From Limimaricola pyoseonensis (GTDB lineage: Bacteria; Pseudomonadota; Alphaproteobacteria; Rhodobacterales; Rhodobacteraceae): a stretch of 64,000 bases of DNA. This document shows positions 27,295 to 44,270 of the stretch, in pieces. Position 1 is the first letter of the stretch, and each line of letters begins with the position of its first letter. The notes beneath the pieces are model-generated. The model was not told the DNA's origin and searched no databases. It worked only from the letters and a program-made list of their open reading frames with translations. The stretch spans positions 49,273 to 113,272 of the forward strand of contig NZ_FNAT01000005.1 of assembly GCF_900102015.1 (NCBI RefSeq), written 5' to 3'. The position numbers and the translations under genes are program-made.

Positions 27295-27716
27295 CGGCAG
27301 CTCCCGATCAGCAGGAGCGGCAGCGCGTCGAAGACCACGCCGATGAACGAGACCAGCGCCAGCAGGAAGCCGGCATGGCCGAGGAACTGGTGCCGGTCCT
27401 CGGCATTGCCCACAGGGTTGGAGAACTCGCCCGTGCCCCAGACCTCCCAGCGCCGGAAGGCGCGCCAGCCGATCCAGCCGATCGCCGCGAGGCAGGCCAG
27501 CGTCAGCGCGCCCAGGGCCAGCCGCAGCCCCTCCATGCCGAACATCCGCTCCAGCCGGAAGCAGTAGACCGAGACCGAGGCGTAGCAGATCAGGAAATGC
27601 CCGGCCCAGATCGTCGGGCCGAGCGTGATCCGCCACAGGCTCTCGCGCTCCTCGGCGAATTCGCGTTCGTCCTCATGCGCGGTGGGCTGGCGGTCGTCGC
27701 GTCCGGGTTCGGCCAT
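27291..27716 (-). CDS. cox-cluster membrane protein of unknown function
   Basis: A 141-residue protein. The N-terminal 27 residues are charged, followed by three hydrophobic segments at about 30-52, 63-87 and 112-138. It lies 10 bp after the ctaD stop and overlaps ctaG, so it is translated with the oxidase genes. Its position suits a small accessory or subunit-IV-like protein of the caa3 complex, but I see no motif that confirms this. GHFLICYASVSVYCFRLER is a distinctive first membrane segment. Confidence 0.78.
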   Translation of the reverse strand: MAEPGRDDRQPTAHEDEREFAEERESLWRITLGPTIWAGHFLICYASVSVYCFRLERMFGMEGLRLALGALTLACLAAIGWIGWRAFRRWEVWGTGEFSNPVGNAEDRHQFLGHAGFLLALVSFIGVVFDALPLLLIGSCR

Positions 27717-27726
27717 GGCGTCCTCC

Positions 27727-30297
27727 TCACATCATCCGCGGCACGAGGCCGATCATCGCGCCGGTGACCAGCGCGGTGAGGCCGAGGAAGTGCCAGAACA
27801 GCGTGACGTTCCACAGATCCGCGTCGTAGCGCGGGGTGAGCTTGCCGAAGAGCGAGCCCGCGAGGCAGTAGAGCTGCATGATCAGCCCCGCGCTGGCATG
27901 CGCCACCAGCCAGACCATCAGCGCCCACATCATCGCCGGGTAGACGTGGGTGGTCGGGTCGAGGTCGAGCACCGAGAAAATGATCGCCGCCATGCCCGCC
28001 GCCGTCAGCAGCGGCCCGGCGACCAGCCCGGCCCGCGCCGCGCCGACCCGGCCCGCGCGGTTCAGCCCGCGCGCGGCGCGCGTCGCCAGCCACGCGGCCG
28101 CGAAGGCGGCGGTGGCCAGCGCGACGAGAGTGCCGCTCGCATGTTCGGCCCCGGGCGGCGGGAAGGCGGCGTTGGAGGTCCAGTAGAAGAACACCCCGAA
28201 GACCAGAGAGGCGAAGGCCGTGGCGTCGCCCAGCATGGTGATCCAGACCGCCCACCAGCCCACCGCCTGCGGCCCCGCCGCGTAGGTGGGCAGCCGCAGC
28301 CCCAGCCCGGCCTCCTTCATGTCGGCCTCGGGCGGCCGCGCCGTGCTGGTCCAGAGCCAGTAGCAGATGCAGACCACCGCGAAGGCGGCGCAGACGATCG
28401 CCGGCGGGTAGAGATGGAAGGTCGGGAAGATGAAGGCCCCGCCGGTGAAACCGGCGGCGAGGATGGTGATGTAGGCCGGGCCGGTCACGCGCTGCACCTG
28501 CAGGGGCCGCGCGTCGATCACGCTGGTCACGATGGTCTCGCGCAGCCCCTCCTCGGCGTCGGGCAGGTAGTAACGGCCGCGATCCATCCGGTCGACCATC
28601 TTCGGCTGGTCCCACAGCGGGTAGCGCGTGGTGACATAGGGGATCGAGCGGACGCCCCATTTCGTCTCGGGGATCTCGTGGCTCCATTCCAGCGTGCCGC
28701 CGCCCCAGGGGTTGCGCTCGATCTGCGGCTGGCCGGATTTCGGGCGCAGGATGTCCCAGGCGAAGACCGCGAAGCCCGCCGCGATGATGAAAGCGCCGAC
28801 GGTCGAGATCTGGTTCAGCCAGTCGATGCCGAGCCCCTCGGGATAGGTGTAGACCCGGCGCGGCATGCCCAGGAGACCCGTCAAGTGCATCGGCAGGAAG
28901 CAGATGTTGAAGCCTGTGAAGATCAGCCAGAAGGCCCAGCGCCCGAGCCGCTCGGACAGCATCTTCTTCCGGAAGAACGGGAAGAAGTAGTAGACCCCGG
29001 CGATCACCGGAAAGATCATGCCGCCGAACAGCGTGTAGTGCAGGTGCGCCACGATGAAGTAGGTGTCGTGCACCTGCCAGTCGAAGGGCGCAATGGCGAC
29101 CATGACGCCGGTGAGCCCGCCCGCGGTGAAGATCGCGAGCGCCCCCGCGATCCACAGCATCGGAAGCGTCATCACCACCCGCCCCGCGATCAGCGTCGCG
29201 ACGAAGGCGAAGAGCTGGATGCCGGTGGGGATCACCACCGCCTCGGACGCCGCCGAGAAGAAGCCAAGCGAGATGTTGGGCAGGCCGGTGGTGAACATGT
29301 GGTGCACCCAGAGCCCGAAGCTCAGGAAGCCCGTGCCCACCGCCGAGAGCACGATCCACGAATAGCCGAGGATCGGCCGGCGCGCGACGGTGGGCACCAC
29401 CATCGCGGCGATGGCGATCGAGGGCAGGAAGATGATGTAGACCTCCGGGTGGCCGAAGATCCAGAACAGGTGCTGCCACAGCATCGGGTCGCCGCCGCGC
29501 GTGGGGTCGAAGAAGGGCCAGTCGAACGAGCGCTCCAGCTCGAACAGGAAATCGCCCGCGATCAGCGGCGGGAAGGCGAAGAGGATCATGCCGCCGACCA
29601 CCAGCACGTACCACGCGTAGAGCGGCATGACATTCACGCGCATCCCCGGCGGCCGGCATTTCAGCGCGCCGACGATCAGCTCGACCGCCGCCGCGATCGA
29701 GGCCACCTCGATGAACGAAAGGCCCAAGAGCCAGATGTCGGAGCCGATGCCCTGCTCCTTGGTGGCGAGCGGCGGGTACATGAACCAGCCCGCCTTGGGC
29801 GCGGCGTCGAACAGGATCGAGCCGATCACGAAGACGCCGCCGATCAGGAAGCACCAGTAGCCATAGGCCGAGAGCCGCGGAAACGGCATGTCGCGCGCGC
29901 CCAAGAAAGCGGGCAGGATCAGGATCGAGATCGCCTCGAACATCGGCACGGCGAAGAGGAACATCATCGCCGAGCCATGCATGGTGAAGAGCTGGTTGAA
30001 GCGGTCGGCCGAGATCAGGTCGTTCTCGGGCGCCCAGAGCTGCAACCGCATCAAGAGCGCCATGACCCCGGCCATCAGCATGAAGAAAAAGGCCGTCAGC
30101 GTGTACCAGAGCCCGACCTCGGAGTTGTTTACCGCCGTCCAATAGCGCCAGCCCTGCGGCGTCTTCCACGCCGCGCGCAGGTTGTCCTCCTGCCGCGCGC
30201 GCACCTCGTCGGGCACCGGCTCGTCGAGCATCTCCTCGGTCGGGGGATAGATGCCCTCGGGCGCGAGATCGCCTGCGGGGATGCGGTTCTGCTTCAT
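27727..30297 (-). CDS. ctaD: cytochrome c oxidase fused subunit I + III
   Basis: An 856-residue fusion. Residues 50-590 are the haem-copper subunit I with haem a ligand His107, the CuB histidines His283 (in FGHPEVY, with Glu285 of the D channel), His332 and His333, and haem ligands His418/His420 in VAHLHY. Residues 620-856 are a subunit III domain with five or more membrane segments. The fusion is known from caa3 oxidases. One oddity is that the K-channel motif normally read PTGIK is PTGIQ here (Gln361 or next to it). The start overlaps the coxB stop as ATGA. Confidence 0.94.
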   Translation of the reverse strand: MKQNRIPAGDLAPEGIYPPTEEMLDEPVPDEVRARQEDNLRAAWKTPQGWRYWTAVNNSEVGLWYTLTAFFFMLMAGVMALLMRLQLWAPENDLISADRFNQLFTMHGSAMMFLFAVPMFEAISILILPAFLGARDMPFPRLSAYGYWCFLIGGVFVIGSILFDAAPKAGWFMYPPLATKEQGIGSDIWLLGLSFIEVASIAAAVELIVGALKCRPPGMRVNVMPLYAWYVLVVGGMILFAFPPLIAGDFLFELERSFDWPFFDPTRGGDPMLWQHLFWIFGHPEVYIIFLPSIAIAAMVVPTVARRPILGYSWIVLSAVGTGFLSFGLWVHHMFTTGLPNISLGFFSAASEAVVIPTGIQLFAFVATLIAGRVVMTLPMLWIAGALAIFTAGGLTGVMVAIAPFDWQVHDTYFIVAHLHYTLFGGMIFPVIAGVYYFFPFFRKKMLSERLGRWAFWLIFTGFNICFLPMHLTGLLGMPRRVYTYPEGLGIDWLNQISTVGAFIIAAGFAVFAWDILRPKSGQPQIERNPWGGGTLEWSHEIPETKWGVRSIPYVTTRYPLWDQPKMVDRMDRGRYYLPDAEEGLRETIVTSVIDARPLQVQRVTGPAYITILAAGFTGGAFIFPTFHLYPPAIVCAAFAVVCICYWLWTSTARPPEADMKEAGLGLRLPTYAAGPQAVGWWAVWITMLGDATAFASLVFGVFFYWTSNAAFPPPGAEHASGTLVALATAAFAAAWLATRAARGLNRAGRVGAARAGLVAGPLLTAAGMAAIIFSVLDLDPTTHVYPAMMWALMVWLVAHASAGLIMQLYCLAGSLFGKLTPRYDADLWNVTLFWHFLGLTALVTGAMIGLVPRMM

Positions 30298-31325
30298 TCG
30301 AGCCCCTCGAGATAGGTCGCGATCGCGCCGAGCTGGTCGTCCGTCAGATGCGCGTAGGCCGGCATCTCGGCGCCGGGCTTCCAGGCGCCGGGGTTGGCGA
30401 CCCACTTGGCAAAGTCCTCGACCGAGGTGCCGAGCCGCCCGGCGGCGAGCGAATGGCGCGAGCCCACATGCGTCAGGTCCGGCCCCACCTGCCCCACGGC
30501 CGGCGTGCCGCGCACCGCGTGGCAGCCGCCGCAGCCCTGCGCGAAGAACAGCGCCCGGCCCCGCTCGGCCAGCGCGCCCTCGGGCGGCCGCGCCTCAGCG
30601 GCCTCGGCCTCGAGCCAGGCTTCGAAGGCGGCGGGCTCCATCACCTCGGCCTCGAAGGCCATCCAGGCGTGGCTCTCGCCGCAGAACTCGGCGCATTGGC
30701 CGCGATAGACGCCCGGCCGCTCGGGCCCCAGCGTCATCTCGGTCACGCGGCCGGGGAACATGTCCATCTTGCCGCCGAGGCTCGGCACCCAGAAGGAGTG
30801 GATCACCTCCTTGCTGTCGAGCAGGAAGGTCGAGCGCACGCCCGCCGGCAGCCGGATCTCGTTGGCGGTGGTCACGGTGCTGCCGTCGGCGCGCTCGTAC
30901 TCCACCCGCCACCACCACTGCTCGCCGGTCACGCGGATCACCGGGCCGTCGCCGGTGGCGCGCAGGTCGGGCATGATCGAAAGCCCGTAGACCAGCAGCG
31001 CGCCCAGCGTCACGGTCGGAAACAGGATGCCGCCCAGGATCACCAGCCAGTTGGCGAGGTATTGCGAATGCGCCGCCGGGCTGCGGCGCGTGGCCCAGTA
31101 GAACAGCCCGTTCATGCCGATCCAGAGCAGCACCGCGCCCACCAGCATGACCCAGAACAGGTCGCCCAGCACGCGCGAATCCTCGCCCGCCGGCACCAGC
31201 ACCGATTGCCGCCCCTCGCAGCCCGCCAGAAGCGCCAGCGCCGCCAGCGGCCACAGCCGCGCGGCGGCCCGGCGCGGTGCGCGCGGGCGCGGCCCGGTCG
31301 TTTCGGCACGAAGGCTGGCTGTCAT
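30294..31325 (-). CDS. coxB: cytochrome c oxidase subunit II with cytochrome c domain (caa3 type)
   Basis: A 343-residue protein. The lipobox LLAGC places the lipidated cysteine at 36. Two membrane hairpin segments lie at about 55-77 and 90-115. The CuA site is formed by His176, Cys211, Cys215, His219 and Met222 (CAEFCGESHAWM), and a C-terminal class I cytochrome c carries CGGCH at 265-269. The haem domain marks the caa3 type, in which the oxidase carries its own cytochrome c. It is the first gene of the cluster, divergent from the 221-aa membrane protein with 168 bp between them. Confidence 0.95.
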   Translation of the reverse strand: MTASLRAETTGPRPRAPRRAAARLWPLAALALLAGCEGRQSVLVPAGEDSRVLGDLFWVMLVGAVLLWIGMNGLFYWATRRSPAAHSQYLANWLVILGGILFPTVTLGALLVYGLSIMPDLRATGDGPVIRVTGEQWWWRVEYERADGSTVTTANEIRLPAGVRSTFLLDSKEVIHSFWVPSLGGKMDMFPGRVTEMTLGPERPGVYRGQCAEFCGESHAWMAFEAEVMEPAAFEAWLEAEAAEARPPEGALAERGRALFFAQGCGGCHAVRGTPAVGQVGPDLTHVGSRHSLAAGRLGTSVEDFAKWVANPGAWKPGAEMPAYAHLTDDQLGAIATYLEGLE

Positions 31326-31493
31326 CTGCGTCCCGTCGAAGCCCCCGCCGCTGCGCGGGTCACGACAATGAGAGCGCGCGCGCGCCTGCGGTCAACGGTC
31401 GCAGGGCGAACAAAGTGGCGGCATCGAAAAGGTTTTCTCGGGCGCGCCGGGCGGCTATGGAACGGCCTCGTAACGCCGATGCGGAGCCGCAGC

Positions 31494-32155
31494 ATGACCC
31501 CCGACCGTTTCACCCCGGCCCGCGTCTTCGGCGCGGCCACCCTCCTGCTCGTGCTCGCCGTCGCGCTGGGCGTGCTGCAGGACCAGCTCGACCGCCAGTT
31601 CCGCGAAAGCGGCATCGTCACCTACGGCTCGGTGCTGCTCCTGGCCGCGATCTCCTGGACCGCCTTCCGGATAGGCCGCATCCGCCGCGACCGCGCGAAA
31701 CCCCTCCTGCGCGATCCACGCGCGGTCTGGGTCGCGATCGGCGCGGGCTTCGCCTTCCTCGCGCTCGACGATCTCGCGCAGGTGCACGAGAACCTCGACC
31801 GGCTGATCCACTACATCCTCGGGATGGAGCAGACCGCCCTGACCGACCGGCTCGACGACGCGATCATCGGGCTCTACGGGCTGGCCGGCCTCGCCGTGCT
31901 CTGGCTCTGCCGCTCCGAGCTGCGCCGGTTCGGCGGGCTGCTGCCCTGGCTCGGCCTCGGCTTCTCGCTGCTGGCGCTGCAGGTCGTCATCGACCTCATC
32001 TCGAACGGCAGCGAATGGCTGGACCTCCTCGACATCGCCGAGGCGCGGCGGCCGCTCTGGGCGGACGTGCTCGGCATCGTCGAGGAGGCGGCCAAGCTCT
32101 TCGCCGAGGCCGCCTTCCTGTCGGGCTTCGCGCGCGTTCTGGCGCGGCTCAAACC

Positions 32156-32159
<4 letters not shown>
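31494..32159 (+). CDS. membrane protein of unknown function
   Basis: A 221-residue protein with about five membrane segments (16-33, 42-58, 80-97, 124-142 and 155-172) and a conserved-looking amphipathic segment LDDLAQVHENLDRLIHYILG. The ATG at 31494 is chosen because GGAG lies at good spacing before it; an ATG 15 bp upstream is the alternative. It is divergent from coxB and ends two bases into the convergent nadE stop. I do not recognise the family. Confidence 0.7.
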
Positions 32160-34219
<2,060 letters not shown>

Positions 34220-34288
34220 GGCATCTCCTCCTGCATCTGCGGCGCGGCGACCATGGCGCGCCCGGGCCGGATGCGCCAGCCCCGCCGC

Positions 34289-34882
34289 TCAGCCACCGCC
34301 CAGCGCGAACCAGCCGCCGACGCCCAGCGCCGCGAGCGCGAGCGCCAGCCCCAGCGCCATCAGCAGCCCGTCGCGCAGCGTCAGCGCCAGCCCGATCGCC
34401 ACGATCGCCGCCATCGGCGCGGTCGAGGCGAAGGGCACCAGCTCCAGCGGCGGTACGGTCAGGCACAGCACCAGCACCGCCACCCCCGCCAGCCGCGTCG
34501 CGCGCGCGCCGGTCAGGCGCGTCCATCGGCCGTGGAACCAGCGGTCGAGCCAGTCGCCGACGCCCTCCATCTTCTCGGCCGCCGCGCGCAGCTTGTCGCC
34601 CGGCACGCTGCGCCGTCGCAGCACGCCCGGCAGCCACAGATCGTCGCGCCGCAGCACCAGCTGCACCGCGAAGATCGAGATGATCAGCGCCAGCAGCGTC
34701 GGCACGCCGGGAATGCCGCCGATGGGCGAGATCTCGATCAGCGCCGGCACGAAGAGGAACGGCCCGTGGCCGCGGTTCCCCAGCGCCGAGATCACGTCGT
34801 CGACCGTGACCTGCTGCGCGTCGCGCCCCTGCTGCTTCAACCGGTCGAGGATATCCTCGACCGCGTGTGTCTGCTTGGCCAT
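34289..34882 (-). CDS. ExoD family membrane protein (exopolysaccharide synthesis)
   Basis: A 197-residue ExoD-like protein (PF06055). In rhizobia ExoD affects exopolysaccharide production and alkaline tolerance; the exact activity is unknown. It has an N-terminal helix (MAKQTHAVEDILDRLKQQGR), two hydrophobic stretches (PFLFVPALIEISPIGGIPG and beyond; residues 50-80) and two C-terminal membrane segments. The ATG at 34882 is chosen to match the family N-terminus rather than an ATG 39 bp upstream. Confidence 0.85.
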   Translation of the reverse strand: MAKQTHAVEDILDRLKQQGRDAQQVTVDDVISALGNRGHGPFLFVPALIEISPIGGIPGVPTLLALIISIFAVQLVLRRDDLWLPGVLRRRSVPGDKLRAAAEKMEGVGDWLDRWFHGRWTRLTGARATRLAGVAVLVLCLTVPPLELVPFASTAPMAAIVAIGLALTLRDGLLMALGLALALAALGVGGWFALGGG

Positions 34883-34943
34883 GCCTCGCCCCGGCTCCCG
34901 TTCGCTTCGCGAGGCCAACACCGGGCCGGGGCGGCTGTTCCGG

Positions 34944-36950
34944 TCAGGCGTGACGATCGGGGCGCTTGCGGGCGGCGCGGCGCGGGCGGGCCCGCGTGGC
35001 GCGGCCCGGCGCGGGCGCGGCGTCGTCCAGCAGCCGCTGCGGCGGGGCCATCGCGGGCTCGGCCCGGCGCGGCAGGGCGCGCTCCAACTCGCTCAGCGTC
35101 GCCAGCGCGGCGGCGTCGGCGTCTCTGTGCAGCACCACGCGGCCGAGCCCCGCGGCCCGGGCGCGCTCGATGGCGGCGGCGGCCTCGGCCGGCCCGGCGG
35201 CATCCGGCAGGGCGATGCGCGACACGACCTCGCCCGCGACCGCCGCCTGCAGCGCCGCCGCCATGTCGATCTGCGCCGCGACATCGACCTGGTCGGCCCT
35301 GGCGCCGCCGGGGGCGGCGTGGTCGAACACCATCGCCTGCGCCTCGCTCAGCCCCGGCGCGCCGCGCAGCGTGCCATGGCCGAAGACGTGCCGCTCGGCC
35401 CGCGCCAGCACCGCCGGCGAGATGCCCAGATCGGCCAGGAAATCGCGCCTCGGGTCGGCGTAGTCGGCCAGTTCCAGCCCAAGCGCCTGCGCGCAGAAGC
35501 CGCGGCCCAGCCGCCACGGCGTCAGCGCCTGCCGCAGCCCGCCGCTTTCGGCCAGCGCCGCCTCGACGCGGGCGATCTGCTCGGTCCCGAAGCCGCGCCG
35601 GCGCAGCGCCGCGTGGTCGAGGCCGGGGGCCGCGTCGAGCGTGCCGTGCCCGGCAAGGTGTCGGATCGCCGCCATCCGCGCCGCGGCGTCGAGGCCGAGC
35701 GCCTCGAGCCCGCGCATCACCGCCGGATGCGGGGCGCGCTGATGCGCCTCGCCGGCCATCTCGGTCTCCGTCACCAGCGCGGCGAGCGGCGCCAGCGGCT
35801 CGGCCGGGCAGCCGGCGATCGCGGCGGCGTCGATCCGGCCGATGGCGGCGACGGTGCGCCCCCCGGCCTGCGCGCAGCCCTGCTGCAGCAGGTCCCCAGC
35901 CTCGGCGGCCGCCGCGCGGGCGGCCGGCGTGGCATAGGCCAGCCCCTGCCCCGCCAACCATGCCCCGAGATCGAGCAGACCGAGCCCGCCCGGCCCGGCC
36001 GCGATGTCGAGCGCCAGCGCCCAGAGCCCCGCGGCATGGACGAAGCCCGCCCGGTCGAAGCCGCCATCCGCATCGAATGCGGTGAGACGCAGCGCCGCGC
36101 GCGGCGCAGGCCCGCGCCGTTCGGCCAGTTGCAGGTCGAGGCGGACGCCGTCGCACAGCGCCGCGGCCAGCGCCGGGCCGGGCTCGGAGGTGACCGCCAG
36201 CCGCAGCGCGGTCCGCGCGCCGGGGGCCGGCAGGTCGCGCCAGGGCGGCCGGCCGGGCCGGTCCTGGCGGCCATGGCGCACCGCGCGGCCGATCCATTGG
36301 TCCGACAGTCCCGCCACCCGCGCAGCACCGATCGCCCGGGCCAGATCCGCCGCCGCACCCTGCCGCTGGGCGCCCGCCACCGCGTCGAGCGGCGCCACCT
36401 GACGCGGCGCGACCGGCCCGGCCGCACGGATCAGCGCGGCACCCCGCGCCGCCCCGAGCAGTTCTTCGGTCGCGGCCACGGCGGCGGGCTCGGCCATGCG
36501 GCCCGCATCGCCGTCGATGCCGTAGGCCCAGCCCAGCCCGACGCCCTGCCAGAAGGCCCGGTCCGGCACCGCCATGCGCCGCAGCAGGGTCGCCGCGATC
36601 TCGTCGCGGAAGGCCATGGCGTCGGCGGGGCGCGCGAAACGGCCCTGCTGCCAGCCGCCATGCGCCAGCGCGCCGGCCAGCCGGCCGATCGCGGCGCGGG
36701 CGTCGCGCTCGGCCGCGTCGCGCGGCGCATCGCCCGCGGCGGGCCACAGCGCCATCGGCAGGCCCGCTTCCGGCATCCGGCTCTGGCGCGCGGGCACCGG
36801 CACCGGCGCGAGGCCATGGGCGGCGAAGGCGTTCGCCTCCGCCTCGCTCCAGTCGAAGGGCACCAGCGCGCCGCCCTCGGGCAGCCGGCGCATGGCGAGC
36901 CCGGACAGGGGGTCCTGCCCGGCCGTCGTGAAGCGCCGCTCGATCCGCAT
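34944..36950 (-). CDS. NrdJ-like protein lacking the ribonucleotide reductase active site
   Basis: A 668-residue protein whose segments line up with adenosylcobalamin-dependent ribonucleotide reductase NrdJ (about 1200 aa). The start MRIERRFTTAGQDP and WAYGIDG at 141-147 match the NrdJ N-terminal domain. Residues 290-355 match the barrel part that follows the active site. Residues 405-610 match the C-terminal region, including GHGTL at 434-438 and again at 524-528. The catalytic NPCSE loop, the GSGTGSNFS substrate loop and the C-terminal zinc ribbon are all missing, and a basic tail (RARPRRAARKRP) ends the protein. The frame is intact with host-like codon use. The role is unknown and reductase activity is not expected. 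Confidence 0.78.
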   Translation of the reverse strand: MRIERRFTTAGQDPLSGLAMRRLPEGGALVPFDWSEAEANAFAAHGLAPVPVPARQSRMPEAGLPMALWPAAGDAPRDAAERDARAAIGRLAGALAHGGWQQGRFARPADAMAFRDEIAATLLRRMAVPDRAFWQGVGLGWAYGIDGDAGRMAEPAAVAATEELLGAARGAALIRAAGPVAPRQVAPLDAVAGAQRQGAAADLARAIGAARVAGLSDQWIGRAVRHGRQDRPGRPPWRDLPAPGARTALRLAVTSEPGPALAAALCDGVRLDLQLAERRGPAPRAALRLTAFDADGGFDRAGFVHAAGLWALALDIAAGPGGLGLLDLGAWLAGQGLAYATPAARAAAAEAGDLLQQGCAQAGGRTVAAIGRIDAAAIAGCPAEPLAPLAALVTETEMAGEAHQRAPHPAVMRGLEALGLDAAARMAAIRHLAGHGTLDAAPGLDHAALRRRGFGTEQIARVEAALAESGGLRQALTPWRLGRGFCAQALGLELADYADPRRDFLADLGISPAVLARAERHVFGHGTLRGAPGLSEAQAMVFDHAAPGGARADQVDVAAQIDMAAALQAAVAGEVVSRIALPDAAGPAEAAAAIERARAAGLGRVVLHRDADAAALATLSELERALPRRAEPAMAPPQRLLDDAAPAPGRATRARPRRAARKRPDRHA

Positions 36951-37125
36951 GCCTGCCCTCGTCCGTCGGAATCGCCAATTGCCGGAGCCTGCCCCGGCGA
37001 TCCGACCGACCCTGTGGCAGGCCCGGCAGACGGTCAACGCGTGCCACCCGGGCCGCGGCGGATTCCCGGCGCGCGCCAGACAGGCGCGAAATCCATCCCC
37101 CGCCCCACGGGCTTCACCCACAGGC

Positions 37126-37134
37126 TTATCCACA
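37126..37134 (+). promoter_or_regulatory. consensus DnaA box (TTATCCACA)
   Basis: Perfect match to the 9-mer DnaA-binding consensus, 176 bp upstream of the NrdJ-like start. One exact match could arise by chance, but a second close copy lies about 100 bp away in the same orientation. Confidence 0.5.
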
Positions 37135-37234
37135 GGGTCATTCACGGGGCCGAGGCCCGGAATCGCCCTGCGAATCAGGGCGATGCGGCGGTGGCGACAG
37201 GCTGACCCCGAGGCAGCCGCCGCAGGTTCGCAAT

Positions 37235-37243
37235 CTATCCACA
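37235..37243 (+). promoter_or_regulatory. DnaA-box-like site (CTATCCACA)
   Basis: One mismatch to TTATCCACA, same orientation as the 37126 site, and both are followed by GG so that TATCCACAGG is shared. Confidence 0.35.
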
Positions 37244-37595
37244 GGCCGGGACAACAGCGGGGCCGAGTTGTCCACCGAAGGGTGTATCCGACGTGCCACA
37301 GCGCCGATTCCGGGGCGATGCGCCGTCGCCGGAGCCGGACCGGCCGCGACGGCGGGTGCCGGGCCTCGGGGGGATTCGCACGATCTGCCAGTCCGACCGC
37401 GCCCCGGCCCGATCGCAACGACGTCGACCGAACGACGACGGCACGCCTCCCGGCGCGTCCCGGTCAGCCGGGAGAACGGTGAGCTTCGCCCGCTCTCAAT
37501 TCGGCAGCGGGCCGGGTCGCGAACGGCAGAAGGACGATACCCAAGGCCCCGAAGGGCCCGCGGGACCGGCCGATACCTCGAATGATGTGAGGATC

Positions 37596-37672
37596 TGGTC
37601 GGGGCGGCAGGATTCGAACCTGCGACCCTCTGTTCCCAAAACAGATGCGCTACCAGGCTGCGCTACGCCCCG
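37596..37672 (-). tRNA. tRNA-Pro (anticodon TGG)
   Basis: A 77-nt tRNA with encoded CCA. The acceptor arms CGGGGCG and CGCCCCG pair fully. The anticodon stem TCTGT/ACAGA encloses the loop TTTGGGA, giving anticodon TGG, and the T-arm carries GGTTCGAATCC. Confidence 0.97.
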
Positions 37673-37736
37673 AACCGTGGCCCTTCTAGGCCGCGCGCGG
37701 CCCGGGCGCAAGCGCCGCCCGAGCCATTCTCCCGGC

Positions 37737-38216
37737 TCAGTCGCAGGGGTCGGCGGCGGGGGTCGCGGCGCTGCCGATCGCGGGGTGGCGCATCGTGTCG
37801 CCCGGCGCGATGCCGAGCCGTCCCGCCATGCCGCCATTGACCTCGAGCACGTACTGGATGTCCGGCCCGCCGGGGATCGGCGTCTCGTCGAGGGGCACCG
37901 CGCCCTCATGCACGTGCCGCACCCGCCCATCCGCGCCCGCGAAGATGATGTCGAGCGGAATCAGCGTGTTTCGCATCCAGAACGAGGCGAAGCGCGGGCT
38001 GTCGTAGACGAAGAGCATGCCCGACATGCGCGGCATCTCCTCGACGAACATCAGGCCGCGCGCGCGCTCGGCGTCGTCGTCGGCGACCTCGACGTCGAAT
38101 CGCGCCTGCCCCCATTCGCCGCGCAGCAGCACCTCGTCCTCGGCGCAGACGGCGGCCGCGGCGGGGCCCGCAAGGGCCATGAGGGCGGCCAGCAGGCCCG
38201 GCGCGATTCGCATCAT
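37737..38216 (-). CDS. DUF192 family secreted protein
   Basis: A 159-residue protein with a signal peptide (residues 1-21, ending PAAAAV) and a DUF192 domain (ARGLMFVEEMPRMSGMLFVY, FWMRNTLIPLDIIF, VLEVNGG). DUF192 is a small beta-rich fold of unknown biochemical role that is widespread in periplasmic proteins. The start ATG overlaps the stop of the cold-shock gene as ATGA, a pairing I recall as common in Rhodobacterales. Confidence 0.9.
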   Translation of the reverse strand: MMRIAPGLLAALMALAGPAAAAVCAEDEVLLRGEWGQARFDVEVADDDAERARGLMFVEEMPRMSGMLFVYDSPRFASFWMRNTLIPLDIIFAGADGRVRHVHEGAVPLDETPIPGGPDIQYVLEVNGGMAGRLGIAPGDTMRHPAIGSAATPAADPCD

Positions 38217-38773
38217 GCGGCGCCGCCCCGCTCGTCGGCGTGCAGCGCCGCATCCCAGGCCAGGATCGCGGTCGCCATGCGGCCGCGCTTGCCCTCGATC
38301 ACCTTCAGCGCCACCGCCTCGCCGGGCTGAAGGTCGGCGAAGCCCGAGCTGCGCAGCACCTCGATATGCAAGAAGATGTCGTCGGGCGCGCCGAACAGGT
38401 TGGCGAAGCCGAAGCCCTTGGCCTTGTCGAACCACTTCACCCGCGCGGGCTCGAGCGGCAGCGCGGCGAGGAAGGCGGGGTCGAACTCGGCGAAGTCCGC
38501 CAGCGGCGCCGCGCCGGGTTGCGCCGGCGCCTCGAGCGCGATGATCGAGACCGCCTGGATGCCGCGCTCGGTGCGTTGCGCGAGGATCCGGATCCGCGTG
38601 CCGTCGGCGACCGAGTTCTGGCCGTAATTGCGCAGCACGTTGCCGTGCAGCAGGATGTCCGCCCCGCCTGAATCGGGAACGATGAAGCCGAACCCCTTGG
38701 CCGTGTCGAACCATTTCACATGACCCGCCACTTCGATCTTGCCGTCGGAGTCCTTGTCCACCATCTCGCTCAT
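38213..38773 (-). CDS. double cold-shock-domain protein
   Basis: A 186-residue cytoplasmic protein with two CSD folds. The first has GHVKWFDTAKGFGFIVPD (near residue 16) and DILLH; the second has ARVKWFDKAKGFGFANLFG (near 115) and DIFLHIEVLR. Both contain the RNP-type KGFGF core that binds single-stranded RNA or DNA. Tandem CSD proteins are typical of Alphaproteobacteria. The ATG at 38773 follows CTGGAGG; the longer frame adds residues without family similarity. Confidence 0.92.
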   Translation of the reverse strand: MSEMVDKDSDGKIEVAGHVKWFDTAKGFGFIVPDSGGADILLHGNVLRNYGQNSVADGTRIRILAQRTERGIQAVSIIALEAPAQPGAAPLADFAEFDPAFLAALPLEPARVKWFDKAKGFGFANLFGAPDDIFLHIEVLRSSGFADLQPGEAVALKVIEGKRGRMATAILAWDAALHADERGGAA

Positions 38774-38873
38774 TCGTGCCTCCAGCGGCCCCGGACCGCC
38801 CGTCCCAACGTCGGGCGTCTCTGCATCACAGGCGCGGTTTCCGCACAAGCCCCCAATTTCATTCCACGTGAAA

Positions 38874-39479
38874 TCATGGGCTCAACCGTATCACTTCGAA
38901 CCGTTCTCCGGGCTCGGCTCGCGACCATTTGTGCCGGTCGTGAAGCCGAAATGCCCCATCGGCCCAGAACTCGATCTCCAGCGGCCGAATCCGGTAGCCG
39001 CCCCAGAAGGGGGGCCGCGCCGGGTCGGGCCCGCGCAGAACGCCCTGCCGCGTCACCTCGGCCACCAGCGCCGCGCGCGAGGCCAGCGGCCGGCTCTGGC
39101 GCGAGGCCCAGGCCCCGAGCCGGCTCTTGAGCGAACGCGACCGGAAATAGGCGTCAGCCTTGGGGCCGTCCTCGCGCTCGACGATGCCGCGCACGCGGAT
39201 CTGCCGCGCGAGCGACTTCCAGTGCATCACGAAGGCCGCCTTGCCCGCGGCCTCGATCTGCCCGGCCTTGGCGCTCTCGTAATTGGTGTAGAACACGAAG
39301 GCGTCGGCCTCGATCTCCTTGAGGAGCACCATCCGCACGTCCGGCAACCCCTGCGGATCGACCGTGGCCAGCGCGATCGCGTTGGGATCGTTCGGTTCGC
39401 TGCGCTCGGCCTCCGACAGCCAGCGACGCGCGATCTCGAACGGATCCTCGCCGGCGAAGATCCCATCACGGTCCGTCAT
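38874..39479 (-). CDS. pdxH: pyridoxamine 5'-phosphate oxidase
   Basis: A 201-residue FMN enzyme producing pyridoxal 5'-phosphate from PNP or PMP. Family motifs are clear: [20 protein letters not shown] (FMN/substrate strand), [16 protein letters not shown] and the C-terminal [13 protein letters not shown]. The length is normal. The ATG at 39479 follows AGAGGG and lies divergent to fabI with 182 bp between the starts. Confidence 0.95.
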
Positions 39480-39661
39480 CAACCCTCTTTCGTCACTCGC
39501 ACCCGACACCTGGTGGGTGCAGTCTATCTCATTCGACGCGTGGATGCGCCGCCCGTTCGATTGATGCCACGGTGACGCCACGTCGCCCAGTGGCCTTGAT
39601 GCCCCCCCGGCGATCGCCTAAACCGGATCGAAACGGTGCCGGACCGGCAAGAGGGACATTC

Positions 39662-40468
39662 ATGACATCGCAGCTGATGGCAGGAAAACGCGGACTCATC
39701 ATGGGTCTCGCAAACGACAAGTCGATCGCCTGGGGGATCGCCAAGGCCTGCGCCAATGCCGGCGCCGAGCTCGCCTTCTCCTATCAGGGCGAGGCGCTGC
39801 TCAAGCGGGTCGGCCCGCTGGCGGCCGAGCTGGGCTCGGACATCGTGCTGCCCTGCGACGTCGGCGACGAGGACAGCATCGACCAGCTGTTCGCCCAACT
39901 CGAGGAGAAATGGGGCAAGCTCGACTTCATCGTCCACGCCATCGGCTTCTCCGACAAGTCCGAGCTGCGCGGCCGCTACGTCGACACCTCTAAGAACAAC
40001 TTCCTGATGTCGATGGACATTTCGGTCTGGTCCTTCACTTCGGTGGTCAAGCGCGCCTCGGCGATGATGAACGAGGGCGGCTCCTGCCTGACGCTGACCT
40101 ATTACGGCGCCGAGAAGGTCATGCCGCATTACAACGTCATGGGCGTGGCCAAGGCGGCGCTGGAAGCCTCGGTGCAGTACCTCGCCGAGGATCTCGGCCG
40201 CGACAACATCCGCGTCAACGCCATCTCGGCCGGCACGATCAAGACGCTCGCGGCCTCCGGCATCGGCGATTTCCGTTACATCATGAAGTGGAACGAGTAC
40301 AATTCGCCCCTGCGCCGCACCGTCACCCAAGACGAGGTCGGCAAATCCGCGCTATACCTGCTGTCCGATCTCGGATCGGCGGTGACGGGCGAGGTGCATC
40401 ACGTCGATGCGGGCTACCACGTCATCGGCATGAAGAACCCGGACGCGCCCGACATCACGAAAGGCTAG
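39662..40468 (+). CDS. fabI: enoyl-[acyl-carrier-protein] reductase (NADH)
   Basis: A 268-residue SDR enzyme catalysing the last step of fatty-acid elongation. The nucleotide motif GLANDKSIAWGIA is present near residue 15, and the catalytic residues Tyr147, Tyr157 and Lys164 keep the FabI spacing (YYGAEKVMPHYNVMGVAK). The ATG at 39662 follows AAGAGGGAC. gpt follows 6 bp after the stop, so the two are probably co-transcribed up to the terminator at 40999. Confidence 0.96.
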   Translation: MTSQLMAGKRGLIMGLANDKSIAWGIAKACANAGAELAFSYQGEALLKRVGPLAAELGSDIVLPCDVGDEDSIDQLFAQLEEKWGKLDFIVHAIGFSDKSELRGRYVDTSKNNFLMSMDISVWSFTSVVKRASAMMNEGGSCLTLTYYGAEKVMPHYNVMGVAKAALEASVQYLAEDLGRDNIRVNAISAGTIKTLAASGIGDFRYIMKWNEYNSPLRRTVTQDEVGKSALYLLSDLGSAVTGEVHHVDAGYHVIGMKNPDAPDITKG

Positions 40469-40474
40469 AGAGCG

Positions 40475-40978
40475 ATGACCGACCGACTGCCGCACGAGAA
40501 AGGCTTCCACGTCTCCTGGGACCAGCTGCACCGCGACAGCCGCGCCCTGGCCTGGCGGCTCGACGGGCGCGGGCCCGACGACGGCGCCTGGAAGGCCGTG
40601 GTGGCGATCACCCGCGGCGGCATGGCGCCGGCGATGATCCTCGCCCGCGAGCTGGGCATCCGCACCGTCGACACCATCTCGGTCAAGTCCTACGAGCACC
40701 AGAGCCAGTCGCACGCCAAGGTGCTCAAGGCCCCCGACGCCGAGATGATGGGCGACGGCACCGGCATCCTGGTGATCGACGACCTGGTCGACACCGGCCG
40801 CACGCTGGAGCTGGTGCGCAAGATGTACCCCAAGGCGCATTTCGCCACCGTCTACGCCAAGCCGCTCGGCAACAAGCAGGTCGACACCTATGTCACCGAG
40901 GTGAGCCAGGACACCTGGATCTTCTTTCCCTGGGACATGGCGCTGCAATATGTCGAGCCCTATCGCGGCCGCGACTGA
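40475..40978 (+). CDS. gpt: xanthine phosphoribosyltransferase
   Basis: A 167-residue purine salvage enzyme converting xanthine (and guanine) with PRPP to the nucleotide. The PRPP motif [13 protein letters not shown] and the N-terminal segment ALAWRLDG match Gpt, and WIFFPWDM closes the protein as in the E. coli enzyme. The ATG at 40475 lies 6 bp after fabI with GAGAG as the ribosome site. Confidence 0.93.
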
Positions 40979-40998
40979 CACCACCGCCCAACACATCG

Positions 40999-41026
40999 AA
41001 CGACCGGCCCCGCGCGGCCGGTCGTT
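40999..41026 (+). terminator. intrinsic-type terminator after gpt
   Basis: An 11-bp perfect stem (AACGACCGGCC / GGCCGGTCGTT) with a 6-nt loop, 20 bp after the gpt stop and followed by TTGCGTTT. Confidence 0.75.
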
Positions 41027-41107
41027 TGCGTTTCTGGCCCAGTGCTTTGGGGTTTGCGCGCCCCCGCCGCCGTCGCTAGCCTCCGCGCGACCGCATCAGG
41101 AGGCCGC

Positions 41108-42280
41108 ATGACCATCGCCCGCACCCGCTCCACCTTCCAGCCACCGGTGATGGAGGCGCGGCGCTGGCTCGAGGGGGTCGACTTCCCGCCGGAGCGGCCG
41201 CTGATCAATGTCAGCCAGGCCGCGCCGCTCGACCCGCCGCCGCGTCCCTTGCGCGAGGCGATGGCGCGGATGGTGATGGAGGATGCACAGGCGCATCTCT
41301 ACGGCCCCGTGCTCGGCCTGTCCGAGCTGCGCGCCGAGATCGCCGGGCGTTGGAGCGCGGATTACGGCGGCGAGGTCCGCCCCGAGCAGGTGGCGATCAC
41401 CTCGGGCTGCAACCAGGCCTATTGCGCGGCGCTCGCCGCGCTCTGCGGCGAGGGCGACGAGGTGATCCTGCCCGAGCCGTGGTACTTCAACCACCGCATG
41501 TGGAACGACATGGCGGGGCTCAGGACCGTGCCGCTCGCGACCGGCGACGACCTGCTGCCCGACCCCGAGGCGGCGGCGGCGCTGATCACCGAGCGCACCC
41601 GCGCCATCGTGCTGGTCAGCCCCAACAACCCCGGCGGGGTCGAGTACCCGTCCGATCTGCTCGCCGCCTTCCGCGACCTGTGCCGCGCCCGCGGGCTGGC
41701 GCTGATCCTCGACGAGACCTATCGCGACTTCGACGCGCGCACGGGCGCGCCGCACGACCTCTTCGCCGATCCCGACTGGGACGAGGTGCTGATTCAGCTC
41801 TACTCCTTCTCCAAGGCCTACCGGCTGACCGGCCACCGGATCGGCGCGCTCACCGCCTCGCCCGCGCGGCTGGCCGAGGCCGAAAAGTTCCTAGACACCG
41901 TCACCATCTGCCCCACCAGCCTGGGCCAGCGCGCCGCGCTGTGGGGCATGCGCAACCTCGGCCAGTGGCTCGCGGGCGAGCGGGCCGAGATCCTCGACCG
42001 TCGTGCCGCCGTGACCGAAAGCTTCGGCCGCCTCGCGGATCGCGGCTGGCGGCTGATGGGCTGCGGCGCCTATTTCGCCTGGATCGAGCACCCGTTCGAC
42101 GCGGCCTCGGACGCGCTCGCCAAGCGCCTCGTGCACGAGGCGGGCGTGCTCCTGCTGCCCGGCACGATGTTCACGCCCGAGGGCTCCGCCCGGGGCCGTA
42201 AACAGCTGCGCATCGCCTTCGCCAATGTCGACCGGGCCGGCATCGCGGCGCTGGAGGACCGGCTCGCAGGCTTCGGCTAG
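41108..42280 (+). CDS. class I/II PLP-dependent aminotransferase
   Basis: A 390-residue fold-type I aminotransferase of the aspartate family. The PLP lysine is Lys236 in LYSFSKAYRLTGHRIG, Asp202 lies in LILDETYRDF, and SPNNPGGVEYP binds substrate carboxylate. The donor and acceptor cannot be read from sequence. The ATG at 41108 follows AGGAGG. It stands between terminators of the neighbouring operons and is probably a single-gene unit. Confidence 0.9.
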   Translation: MTIARTRSTFQPPVMEARRWLEGVDFPPERPLINVSQAAPLDPPPRPLREAMARMVMEDAQAHLYGPVLGLSELRAEIAGRWSADYGGEVRPEQVAITSGCNQAYCAALAALCGEGDEVILPEPWYFNHRMWNDMAGLRTVPLATGDDLLPDPEAAAALITERTRAIVLVSPNNPGGVEYPSDLLAAFRDLCRARGLALILDETYRDFDARTGAPHDLFADPDWDEVLIQLYSFSKAYRLTGHRIGALTASPARLAEAEKFLDTVTICPTSLGQRAALWGMRNLGQWLAGERAEILDRRAAVTESFGRLADRGWRLMGCGAYFAWIEHPFDAASDALAKRLVHEAGVLLLPGTMFTPEGSARGRKQLRIAFANVDRAGIAALEDRLAGFG

Positions 42281-42371
42281 GCCCGCCCGGCTTGCGCGCC
42301 CTGCCCCTCTTGCCTATGCAACACCGACACGCATCCGGGCCCATGCCGAGGCCTGCGACAGGGGGACCGTC

Positions 42372-44270
42372 ATGGCTGAGAAAAAGGGCAACCGCGTCTT
42401 CGTCTGGATCATCCTGATCCTGCTTTTCGTGGGCCTCATCGGGTTCGGCGCCACGGGGCTGACCGGTCACGCGACCCGGCTCGGCACGGTCGGCGAAAAG
42501 GAGCTGGAGGTGCAGGCCTACGCCAACGCGCTGCAAAGCCGCATCCGCGCCTTCGAAAGCCAGACCGGCGAGGCGGTGAGCCTCGCGCAGGCGCAGCAGA
42601 TCGGCCTCGACCGCGCCGTTCTGGGCCGGCTGGTGACCGAGCGGGTGCTCGACAACGAAGCCGACCGCCTCGGCCTGTCGGTCGGCGACGAGCGGGTGCG
42701 CGAGCAGGTGCTGCAGATCGGCGCCTTCCAGGGGCTCGACGGCCAGTTCGACCGCGACGCCTATCGCGAGGCGCTGCGCCGCAACGGCCTGACCGTCTCC
42801 GAGTTCGAGACCGGGCTGCGCGAGGGCGAGGCCCGCGCGCTGCTCGAAAGCGCCGTGGTGAACGGCATCGCCGCGCCCCAGCCGCATGTCGACGCGATGA
42901 TCGACTTCCTGATGGCGCGCCGCGACATCACCTGGGCGCCCGTCACGCTCTCGCCCGCCGCCGCCGCCGCGCCCGCGGGCGACGGCCCGCGCGTGCTGCT
43001 GCCCGAGATCACCCTCGACCCCGAGATCCCCGCCCCCTCCGAGGCCGAGATCCAGGCCCGTTACGAGGCCGCGCCCGAGGCCTACACCGCGCCCGAGCGG
43101 CGCGAGATCACCTATGCCTGGCTGCGCCCCGAAACCGTGAGCGAGAGCATCGAGGTGCCCGAGGAGGACGTCCGCGCCCTCTACGAGCAGCGCATCGACG
43201 ACTACGTGCAGGAAGAGCGCCGCCTGGTCGAGCGCCTGGTCTACCCCAATGCCGAGGCCGCAACGGAGGCCAAGGCCCGTCTCGACGCCGGCGAGGCCGA
43301 GTTCGAGGCGCTGGTCGAGGCGCGCGGGCTCGACCTGTCGGACGCCGATCTGGGCGACGTGGCGCGCGGCGATCTGGGCGACGCCGCCGAGCCGGTCTTC
43401 GCGGCAGAGGCCGGCGAGGTGGTCGGCCCGGTCGAGACCGGCCTCGGCCCGGCGCTGTTTAGGGTCAACGCCGTGCTCGGCGCCGAGGAAGTGAGCTTCG
43501 AGGAGGCCGCGCCCGATCTGCGCGGCGAGCTGGCCCGCGCCATGGCGCGGCGCGAGATCCAGGACGCGACCGACGAGATCGAGGATCTGCTCGCCGGCGG
43601 CGCGGCGCTCGAGGACCTGGCCGAGCGCACCGGCATGGAGCTCGGCAGCCTGTCCTGGTCCGAGGGCGAGACCGACGGCATCGCCGCCTACGCCCCCTTC
43701 CGTCAGGCCGCCGCCGTGGCCGAGCAGGGCGACTTCCCCGAGCTGATCGGCTTCGAGGATGGCGGCGTCTTCGCGCTGCGGCTCGACGGCGTGACCGAAC
43801 CGGCGCTGCGCCCGCTCGATGAGGTGCGCGAGCAGGTGGTGGCCGACATCATGGCCGAGACCCGGCAGACGATGCTCACCGAGCGCGCCGAGGCGCTGGC
43901 CGCCGAGATCGCGGGCGGGGCCTCCTTCGAGGCCGCGGGCCTCGCGCCGCGCGACGTCGACGCCCTGACCCGCCGCGACTTCGTCGAGGGCACCGCGCCC
44001 GGCTTCGTGACCGAGATCTTCGAGATGGAAGAGGGCGAGACCCGCGCCATCGCGCTGCCCGAGGGCGCCGCCGTGGTCCGGCTCGACGCCACCGCCGCGC
44101 CCGAGGCCGACGACCCGGCCGTGGCGGCCGAGCGGCAGGCCATCGAACAGCGGCTCGCCGGCTCGATCGCGCAGGACATCTACGCCGCCTACGCCACCGA
44201 GGTGCAGGCCAACACCGAGATCCGCATCGACGACGCCGCCATCCAGGCGGTCCACAGCTCCTTCAGGTAA
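42372..44270 (+). CDS. PpiD/SurA-type periplasmic peptidyl-prolyl isomerase
   Basis: A 632-residue membrane-anchored chaperone. A single N-terminal anchor (residues 9-28) is followed by a SurA_N-like domain (QAYANALQSRIRAFESQTG, then LVTERVLDNEADRLGLSV). A parvulin-like central domain spans about 245-370, weakly conserved and probably non-catalytic, and a second similar domain follows. It should assist folding of exported proteins at the inner membrane. The ATG at 42372 follows AGGGGGACC. It lies 8 bp before trpE and may share its transcript. Confidence 0.85.
   Translation: MAEKKGNRVFVWIILILLFVGLIGFGATGLTGHATRLGTVGEKELEVQAYANALQSRIRAFESQTGEAVSLAQAQQIGLDRAVLGRLVTERVLDNEADRLGLSVGDERVREQVLQIGAFQGLDGQFDRDAYREALRRNGLTVSEFETGLREGEARALLESAVVNGIAAPQPHVDAMIDFLMARRDITWAPVTLSPAAAAAPAGDGPRVLLPEITLDPEIPAPSEAEIQARYEAAPEAYTAPERREITYAWLRPETVSESIEVPEEDVRALYEQRIDDYVQEERRLVERLVYPNAEAATEAKARLDAGEAEFEALVEARGLDLSDADLGDVARGDLGDAAEPVFAAEAGEVVGPVETGLGPALFRVNAVLGAEEVSFEEAAPDLRGELARAMARREIQDATDEIEDLLAGGAALEDLAERTGMELGSLSWSEGETDGIAAYAPFRQAAAVAEQGDFPELIGFEDGGVFALRLDGVTEPALRPLDEVREQVVADIMAETRQTMLTERAEALAAEIAGGASFEAAGLAPRDVDALTRRDFVEGTAPGFVTEIFEMEEGETRAIALPEGAAVVRLDATAAPEADDPAVAAERQAIEQRLAGSIAQDIYAAYATEVQANTEIRIDDAAIQAVHSSFR

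What the first reader, a model, noticed from the sequence alone, without database searches (positions are those of the whole stretch)
34944..36950. NrdJ-shaped protein without a ribonucleotide reductase active site
The protein aligns by eye with NrdJ over its N-terminus (MRIERRFTTAGQDP, WAYGIDG), middle and C-terminal third (two GHGTL segments, RVEAAL), yet it is about half the size. It lacks the NPCSE catalytic loop, the GSGTGSNFS loop and the zinc ribbon. The frame is 668 codons long without a break and in a GC-rich host, so decay by neglect is unlikely. A reductase shell may act as a nucleotide sensor, a partner or regulator of the true NrdJ, or a B12-binding protein. I know of no assigned function.
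Basis: partly seen in the sequence, partly recalled or inferred. Interest (0 to 1): 0.72.

Follow-up and report, generated by a model that had tools for sequence, protein, structure and literature searches.

The report
Dead half-size DNA-precursor enzyme remnant
In the bacterial genus Limimaricola a large enzyme that makes DNA building blocks has lost its active-site half, yet the shortened protein still appears to be kept by selection, so it may do a different, unknown job.

Summary
Window 34947-36950 (minus strand) encodes a 668-aa protein collinear with the roughly 1220-aa class II ribonucleotide reductase NrdJ (R. sphaeroides 7b9p, E 3.2e-55). The active-site, effector-loop and zinc-ribbon motifs are missing. 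By genus label and contig lengths the host groups with Limimaricola. No long NrdJ was found in its 8 genomes: 5 have an intact short form (599-668 aa), 1 is frameshifted, 1 split between contig ends, 1 cut off at a contig end. The gene sits at the ancestral nrdJ locus: nrdJ degraded in place. It is not simply decaying: a codon model on four sister species gives omega 0.215 and rejects neutrality in 10 of 10 segments, though constraint is 3-4 times weaker than in three neighbours and composition has drifted. The only other RNR found is a class II NrdJ_Z. NrdR-box-like sites precede 19 of 21 long nrdJ genes, 0 of 8 short ones. A sensor role through the RNR effector site is disfavoured. Best reading: a catalytically dead pseudoenzyme kept for a secondary, probably binding, function; function is inferred, not shown.

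The parts
34947..36950 (-). Short NrdJ-derived gene, 668 codons (stop at 34944-34946)
36579..36866 (-). Ribonuc_red_2_N domain (residues 29-124), the class II RNR N-terminal domain
   Evidence: Pfam PF08471, 28.7 bits vs cut-off 27; not detected at E up to 0.1 in the three sister short proteins scanned
36510..36530 (-). WAYGIDG (residues 141-147), kept here, absent from the 5 other short rows
36102..36503 (-). Residues 150-283: all that stands in place of about NrdJ 172-489 (active site, effector loops); partly modelled with low confidence
35112..36098 (-). Residues 285-613: remains of the second half of the RNR barrel plus the helical GHGT segment; residues 441-480 are the most identical block among the short proteins
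   Evidence: (NrdJ 490-523 weakly, 670-916 strongly)
35637..35651 (-). GHGTL segment 1 (residues 434-438)
35553..35570 (-). RVEAAL (residues 461-466)
35367..35381 (-). GHGTL segment 2 (residues 524-528)
37033..37038 (-). GTTGAC, -35-like hexamer, present in 8 of 8 Limimaricola upstream regions; no NrdR-box-like site near it
37126..37134 (-). TGTGGATAA, DnaA-box-like site (name recalled) inside a block conserved in the genus
37235..37243 (-). TGTGGATAG, second such site about 110 bp further upstream
37596..37672 (-). tRNA-Pro(TGG), upstream neighbour shared with 7 of 13 full-length nrdJ loci examined
34289..34882 (-). ExoD-like gene directly downstream, same strand (name recalled)

Best explanation
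The gene is the in-place, catalytically dead descendant of the long class II ribonucleotide reductase gene nrdJ. In the ancestor of Limimaricola a second class II enzyme, NrdJ_Z, was left to make the deoxyribonucleotides. The long NrdJ then lost the first half of its barrel with the active site and effector loops, and its C-terminal zinc domain; its upstream region lost the NrdR boxes but kept a core promoter. The remaining protein (N-terminal segment, remains of the second half-barrel, helical GHGT module) is still kept by moderate purifying selection. Shown by computation: descent, position, missing motifs, no other RNR class found, constraint among sister species. Inferred: that it is made, that it works as a binding or scaffold protein, and that it keeps a non-catalytic side function which the full enzyme already had. 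I put about 0.35 on that specific role and about 0.85 on 'dead nrdJ descendant, still a constrained protein'.
For: Homology and collinearity with gaps at the catalytic parts. Same locus: csp, tRNA-Pro and nrdJ lie together in 7 of 13 full-length loci examined, and the same neighbours flank the short gene. No long NrdJ found in 8 of 8 genomes of the genus, and one other large-subunit RNR gene in each, in two pieces in G002; in the window's genome it is NrdJ_Z, 607.2 bits over cut-off 399.95, with no class I small subunit and no NrdD found. Omega 0.215 on 587 codons of four sister species, 2dlnL 327.9 against omega = 1; each of 10 segments rejects 1 (2dlnL 17.9 to 77.4). Recent pair G006/G007: dN/dS 0.30; third positions differ at 11.7%, first and second at 4.7% each. 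In the five-species branch test omega = 1 is rejected on 4 of 5 terminal branches. Conserved blocks upstream in 8 of 8.
Against: Constraint is weak for a useful gene: 0.215 against 0.055-0.074 in three neighbours and 0.034 in NrdJ_Z. Amino-acid make-up has drifted: A+R+G+P 51-56% against 28-37% in five full-length NrdJ, Lys at most 0.6%. Pieces differ between lineages: the window copy keeps WAYGIDG and lost about NrdJ 601-650, the sisters the reverse. G002 has a frameshift. Omega on the window's own branch could not be estimated (branch length at its bound), and on the G007 branch neutrality is not rejected (2dlnL 2.76). The nucleotide-level indel test gave no clear support. The structure match has a large rmsd (16.7) and was guided by NrdJ sequences. 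No expression, partner or phenotype data.
Confidence: 0.6

Rival explanations
1. Slowly dying gene: the reductase became dispensable and is eroding by in-frame deletions and drift; remaining constraint only avoids toxic misfolded products or keeps translation into the downstream genes running.
For: Weak constraint and strong compositional drift; different pieces lost in different lineages; frameshift in G002; loss of NrdR-box-like sites.
Against: Intact short frame in 5 of 8 genomes, with 9-19 length changes between the 9 more distant pairs (in frame by construction of the alignment); neutrality rejected in 10 of 10 segments and third-position excess in the recent G006/G007 pair; conserved upstream blocks; the G002 assembly also splits its RNR gene.
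Confidence: 0.27
2. Regulator or partner of the remaining RNR, NrdJ_Z: the shell binds it and tunes dNTP supply.
For: NrdJ_Z is the only other RNR found in the genome and the shell descends from a reductase.
Against: The loop 1/loop 2 region and the cysteine-rich C-terminal domain are missing. No NrdR-box-like site within 2 mismatches was found in the RNR loci searched, so no sign of shared NrdR control.
Confidence: 0.1
3. Nucleotide sensor or B12-binding protein.
For: Descent from a B12- and nucleotide-binding enzyme.
Against: Effector loops missing; PTGTI loop changed in 6 of 6 short rows. B12 contacts were not mapped.
Confidence: 0.05

Closest known systems
Long class II ribonucleotide reductase NrdJ (NCBIfam NF005736 / PRK07562; PDB 7b9p, Rhodobacter sphaeroides)
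   Same: Collinear sequence over N-terminus, second half of the barrel and GHGT region; same neighbours as in 7 of 13 full-length loci examined; a GTTGAC hexamer upstream, as in 15 of 21 full-length loci
   Different: 668 against about 1220 aa; active site, effector loops and zinc ribbon missing; no NrdR-box-like site; weaker constraint and drifted composition
Catalytically inactive herpesvirus RNR large-subunit homologues (recalled; of PMC12845177 only the search listing was seen)
   Same: RNR-derived proteins without reductase activity kept for another job (recalled)
   Different: Unrelated origin in viruses; those roles concern host signalling (recalled)
NrdJ_Z (TIGR02504), the host's remaining RNR
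   Same: Class II relative in the same cell
   Different: Has barrel, TSCPD domain and NPCGE motif; zinc ribbon by eye only

Membership tests
Class II RNR NrdJ (NF005736) | Profile score above curated cut-off 1737 bits | tested here: not met
   172.7 bits; the full-length control L038 scores 2190.6
Class II RNR NrdJ (NF005736) | Finger-loop NPCSE, beta-A Cys (HACFIQ) and beta-F Cys (ACNLAS) | tested here: not met
   0 of 6 short rows against 49 of 49 full-length rows (full-length rows chosen partly by NPCSE). The structural roles of the motifs are recalled
Class II RNR NrdJ (NF005736) | RNR barrel domain PF02867 | tested here: not met
   No hit in P0001 at E up to 10 nor in 3 sister short proteins at E up to 0.1; full-length L038 hits
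Class II RNR NrdJ (NF005736) | Effector loops 1 and 2 (region of SGLM..GGTTRRAAKM) | tested here: not met
   5 of 6 short rows empty; P0001 has 12 doubtfully aligned letters; GGTTRRAAKM in 49 of 49 full-length rows
Class II RNR NrdJ (NF005736) | C-terminal TSCPD domain and zinc ribbon | tested here: not met
   No TSCPD hit in the 4 short proteins scanned; ribbon cysteines in 0 of 6 short and 49 of 49 full-length rows
Class II RNR NrdJ (NF005736) | N-terminal domain PF08471 | tested here: met
   P0001 28.7 bits over 27; not detected in the L033, L035 and L037 copies
Class II RNR NrdJ (NF005736) | Orthology by position | tested here: met
   Same neighbours as in 7 of 13 full-length loci examined; 6 differ or could not show it (L133 ends at the gene)
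Class II RNR NrdJ (NF005736) | Adenosylcobalamin-dependent reductase activity | not testable with these tools
   expected absent because the motifs are missing
Pseudogene | Disrupted frame in sister species | tested here: inconclusive
   5 of 8 intact, 1 frameshifted (G002), 1 split between two contig ends (G005), 1 cut off after 36 codons (G001)
Pseudogene | No purifying selection (omega near 1) | tested here: not met
   omega 0.215, 2dlnL 327.9 on four sister species; not settled for the window's own branch

The most novel reading that the evidence does not exclude
A bacterial ribonucleotide reductase has become a stable non-enzyme across a whole genus: it left the NrdR regulon, sits under a promoter block with DnaA-box-like and GANTC sites, and serves a cell-cycle or replication-linked binding role that exposes a hidden second function of long NrdJ in alphaproteobacteria.
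Probability: 0.15. Interest if true: 0.75.

Novelty: new variant of a known kind. Interest (0 to 1): 0.5.

Why it matters
It looks like an RNR caught turning into something else: full enzyme in neighbouring genera, half-size dead form in one genus, same locus, measurable selection. It could reveal whether class II RNRs carry non-catalytic functions, and the dispensability of long NrdJ where NrdJ_Z is present can be tested directly. The searches (open-access library only; 20 of 51, 15 of 51, 9 of 9, 7 of 7 and 8 of 28 papers listed) showed me no title or abstract start on a bacterial RNR pseudoenzyme of this type. Six papers use the phrase 'ribonucleotide reductase-like protein' and were not read, and NCBIfam has a subfamily of that name (NF005401), so a prior report is not excluded.

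Tried and rejected
Class I replacement: I first took the C8 RNR for class I NrdA (note; scripts carry the label 'nrdA'). One search shows NrdJ_Z (class II), and one search finds no class I small subunit. Corrected.

Replication origin: the upstream DnaA-box-like sites suggested one, but cumulative GC skew of the 244-kb contig keeps falling through this place, without a minimum there. Rejected. No chance control was run for the DnaA-box-like or GANTC sites.

Nucleotide-level indel phase test: gap costs were too lax and the alignments too gappy; multiples of three were 188 of 619 gaps in the gene and 36 of 155 upstream. Not used. The in-frame gap counts come from a protein-guided alignment and are in frame by construction.

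First structure model (5 sequences, pLDDT 49.5) was too poor to use. The second (55 sequences, pLDDT 74.8, pTM 0.71) matches 7b9p (E 5.8e-22, TM 0.62 by query length, but rmsd 16.7 over 916 columns), and 49 full-length NrdJ rows guided it, so the match is not independent proof of fold.

Domain look-up for the GHGT segment: only sub-threshold hits such as SAM_SMF (DprA) and UBA_DHX29; not interpreted.

One search stopped with an error and had used wrong frames for exoD and csp; redone.

The NrdR-box consensus was typed partly from recall and partly from looking, so one search is mildly circular. Of the full-length loci only 21 same-family ones were given; one of the 8 short ones (L050, 4 mismatches) had a shuffle fraction of 0.035.

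The tree used (G003 with G000) was assumed from identities, not inferred.

Full report
WHAT IS THERE. The gene runs from 36950 down to 34947 (stop 34944-34946) on the minus strand, 668 aa. Against the sequences of solved structures, with E up to 10, it matches only the class II RNR of Rhodobacter sphaeroides significantly (7b9p E 3.2e-55, 7b9q E 5.5e-55; the third hit has E 0.24; the organism is named). There are two strong stretches, residues 2-149 to NrdJ 2-171 and residues 366-613 to NrdJ 670-916, and a weak one (285-318 to 490-523) between. NCBIfam gives the long B12-dependent RNR model NF005736 at E 8.4e-51 but 172.7 bits against a cut-off of 1737; Pfam gives only Ribonuc_red_2_N.

WHAT IS MISSING. 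Alignment A4 has 6 short and 49 full-length rows. HACFIQ, GSGTG[TS]NFS, GGTTRRAAKM, NPCSE, ACNLAS and the zinc-ribbon cysteines occur in 49 of 49 full-length rows and, searched as patterns over the whole row, in 0 of 6 short rows (for the effector loops the shorter GGTTRR was searched). APTGTI is in 49 of 49 full-length rows and altered in 6 of 6 short ones. Short rows do carry letters in the finger-loop columns, and P0001 has 12 doubtfully aligned letters in the effector-loop columns. The full-length rows were chosen by a script that required NPCSE and a GSGTG-type motif, so conservation of these two is partly by selection; one short row (L045) ends at its frameshift. The structural roles of the motifs are recalled. 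Loss of the C-terminal cysteine-rich domain fits a report that it matters for catalytic turnover of a class II RNR (PMC5704485, abstract and passages), and that long class II RNRs have folded C-terminal domains (PMC9669993, passages).

WHERE IT OCCURS. The search of 195 genomes (own included) matched 161. Seven others are labelled the same genus; six of them matched and the seventh, G001, only at E 0.0016. A scan of genome contigs returned 9 loci, 6 titled Limimaricola (soesokkakensis, variabilis, hongkongensis, two cinnabarinus strains and sp. G21655-S1), whose contig lengths equal those of G002-G007. The other 3 loci lie outside the genus, with tblastn spans of 2.7-2.9 kb for 610-666 query residues, as expected of long NrdJ (one of them, L068, is the contig of the full-length L041, by length). 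In the genus, intact short ORFs occur in 5 of 8 genomes (G000 668, G006 and G007 642, G003 614, G004 599 aa). G002 has a frameshift, G005 is split between two contig ends and G001 shows only the first 36 codons at a contig end. Each genus genome has one gene with the RNR barrel PF02867 and open frames well under 1220 aa, G002's in two pieces, so no long NrdJ was found. In the non-genus rows listed the open frames run from 1166 to 1526 aa, apart from G048 (1031), G135 (979) and G189 (663); G048 and G135 run into contig ends, G189 was not checked. Not all rows were listed.

LOCUS. Genes I name from recall as ppiD, an aminotransferase, gpt, fabI, pdxH and csp, and a tRNA-Pro, lie upstream of the short gene. 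csp and tRNA-Pro stand before full-length nrdJ in 7 of 13 full-length loci examined (in one, L130, some 2.8 kb away; in another, L133, the contig ends at the gene). I infer that the short gene is nrdJ itself, changed in place, not a transferred paralogue. Downstream, exoD and nadE were found in 6 of 6 sister loci that cover that side, and in 0 of 13 full-length loci within the fetched stretch.

THE REMAINING RNR. The window's genome has one PF02867 gene, on C8. It is class II NrdJ_Z (TIGR02504, 607.2 bits over 399.95; NPCGE motif; TSCPD; zinc ribbon by eye). No class I small subunit and no NrdD were found, while those searches rang in 7 and 6 of 14 control genomes. I first misread this gene as class I and corrected it. 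So DNA precursors seem to depend on one B12-dependent enzyme. Sister copies of it were typed only through identity (94-99% among the five genomes compared).

IS IT DECAYING? The open frame is weak evidence: 2 of 5 alternative frames are also stop-free. Comparison between species is better. Nei-Gojobori dN/dS for the recent pair G006/G007 is 0.30, against 0.13 (exoD), 0.11 (nadE), 0 (csp) and 0.02 (NrdJ_Z). A codon model on four sister species gives 0.215, against 0.055-0.074 for three neighbours and 0.034 for NrdJ_Z; omega = 1 is rejected by 327.9 (2dlnL), and in 10 of 10 segments; the lowest segment is G007 residues 201-270 (0.069). In the five-species branch test omega = 1 is rejected on the G000, G003, G004 and G006 branches and not on G007 (2.76); the G000 branch length ran to its bound, so its omega is unreliable. 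On the other side, composition has drifted: A+R+G+P 51-56% against 28-37% in five full-length NrdJ; Lys 0.1-0.6% against 2.8-5.9%. Identity to P0001 is only 39-44% where nadE keeps 85-88%. The nucleotide indel test was of no use. The protein is thus constrained, but loosely, and most clearly so in the sister species.

REGULATION. An NrdR-box-like site (at most 2 mismatches) precedes 19 of 21 full-length nrdJ genes and 0 of 8 short ones (best 4-6 mismatches); the GTTGAC hexamer is present in 8 of 8 short and 15 of 21 full-length upstream regions. nrdR is present in 13 of 13 genomes tested. The upstream 380 bp hold blocks conserved in the genus, with two DnaA-box-like sites (at most 1 mismatch) about 110 bp apart in 7 of 8 copies and at least one GANTC site in 8 of 8. 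The site names are recalled; chance was not tested for them and function is unknown. The contig shows no skew minimum there.

MECHANISM. Shown by computation: descent in place, loss of catalytic and effector parts, a constrained protein in the genus, loss of NrdR-box-like sites. Inferred: that the second class II enzyme made the long one dispensable as a reductase, that the protein is made, and that a non-catalytic property, most likely binding of a partner through the retained helical half, remained under selection. Slow decay under residual selection is the main rival.

NOVELTY. RNR-derived pseudoenzymes are known from herpesviruses (recalled). Searches showed none for bacteria in what was listed; I looked at listings and abstract starts only, apart from passages of PMC5704485, PMC9669993 and PMC8365446.

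Noticed in passing
G000:C8 (L044:8668-10941): The only other RNR found in this genome is a B12-dependent NrdJ_Z; no class I small subunit or class III RNR was found, so DNA synthesis looks cobalamin-dependent.
   Followed up: yes
window 36950-37330: Upstream region with blocks conserved in 8 Limimaricola genomes: DnaA-box-like sites, GANTC sites and a GTTGAC hexamer. The pattern TGTGGAWAANCCTGTGGG has one exact match in the genome, here, and one more with two mismatches.
   Followed up: partly
L140 (G000:C7:34449-34462) and L141 (G000:C12:357047-357060): The only two sites in the genome within one mismatch of an NrdR-box pattern; the first lies between a RarA-like ATPase gene and an acyl-homoserine-lactone-synthase-like gene (names recalled). 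The reversed-pattern control gave 29 hits per strand, so these may be chance.
   Followed up: partly
L045 (G002): Frameshift in the G002 copy of the short gene; the same assembly also has its RNR gene in two frames, so sequencing error is likely.
   Followed up: partly
window 27500-44000: Very long apparently spurious ORFs (up to 1602 aa) opposite real genes in this GC-rich window: frame length is no evidence of coding here.
   Followed up: partly
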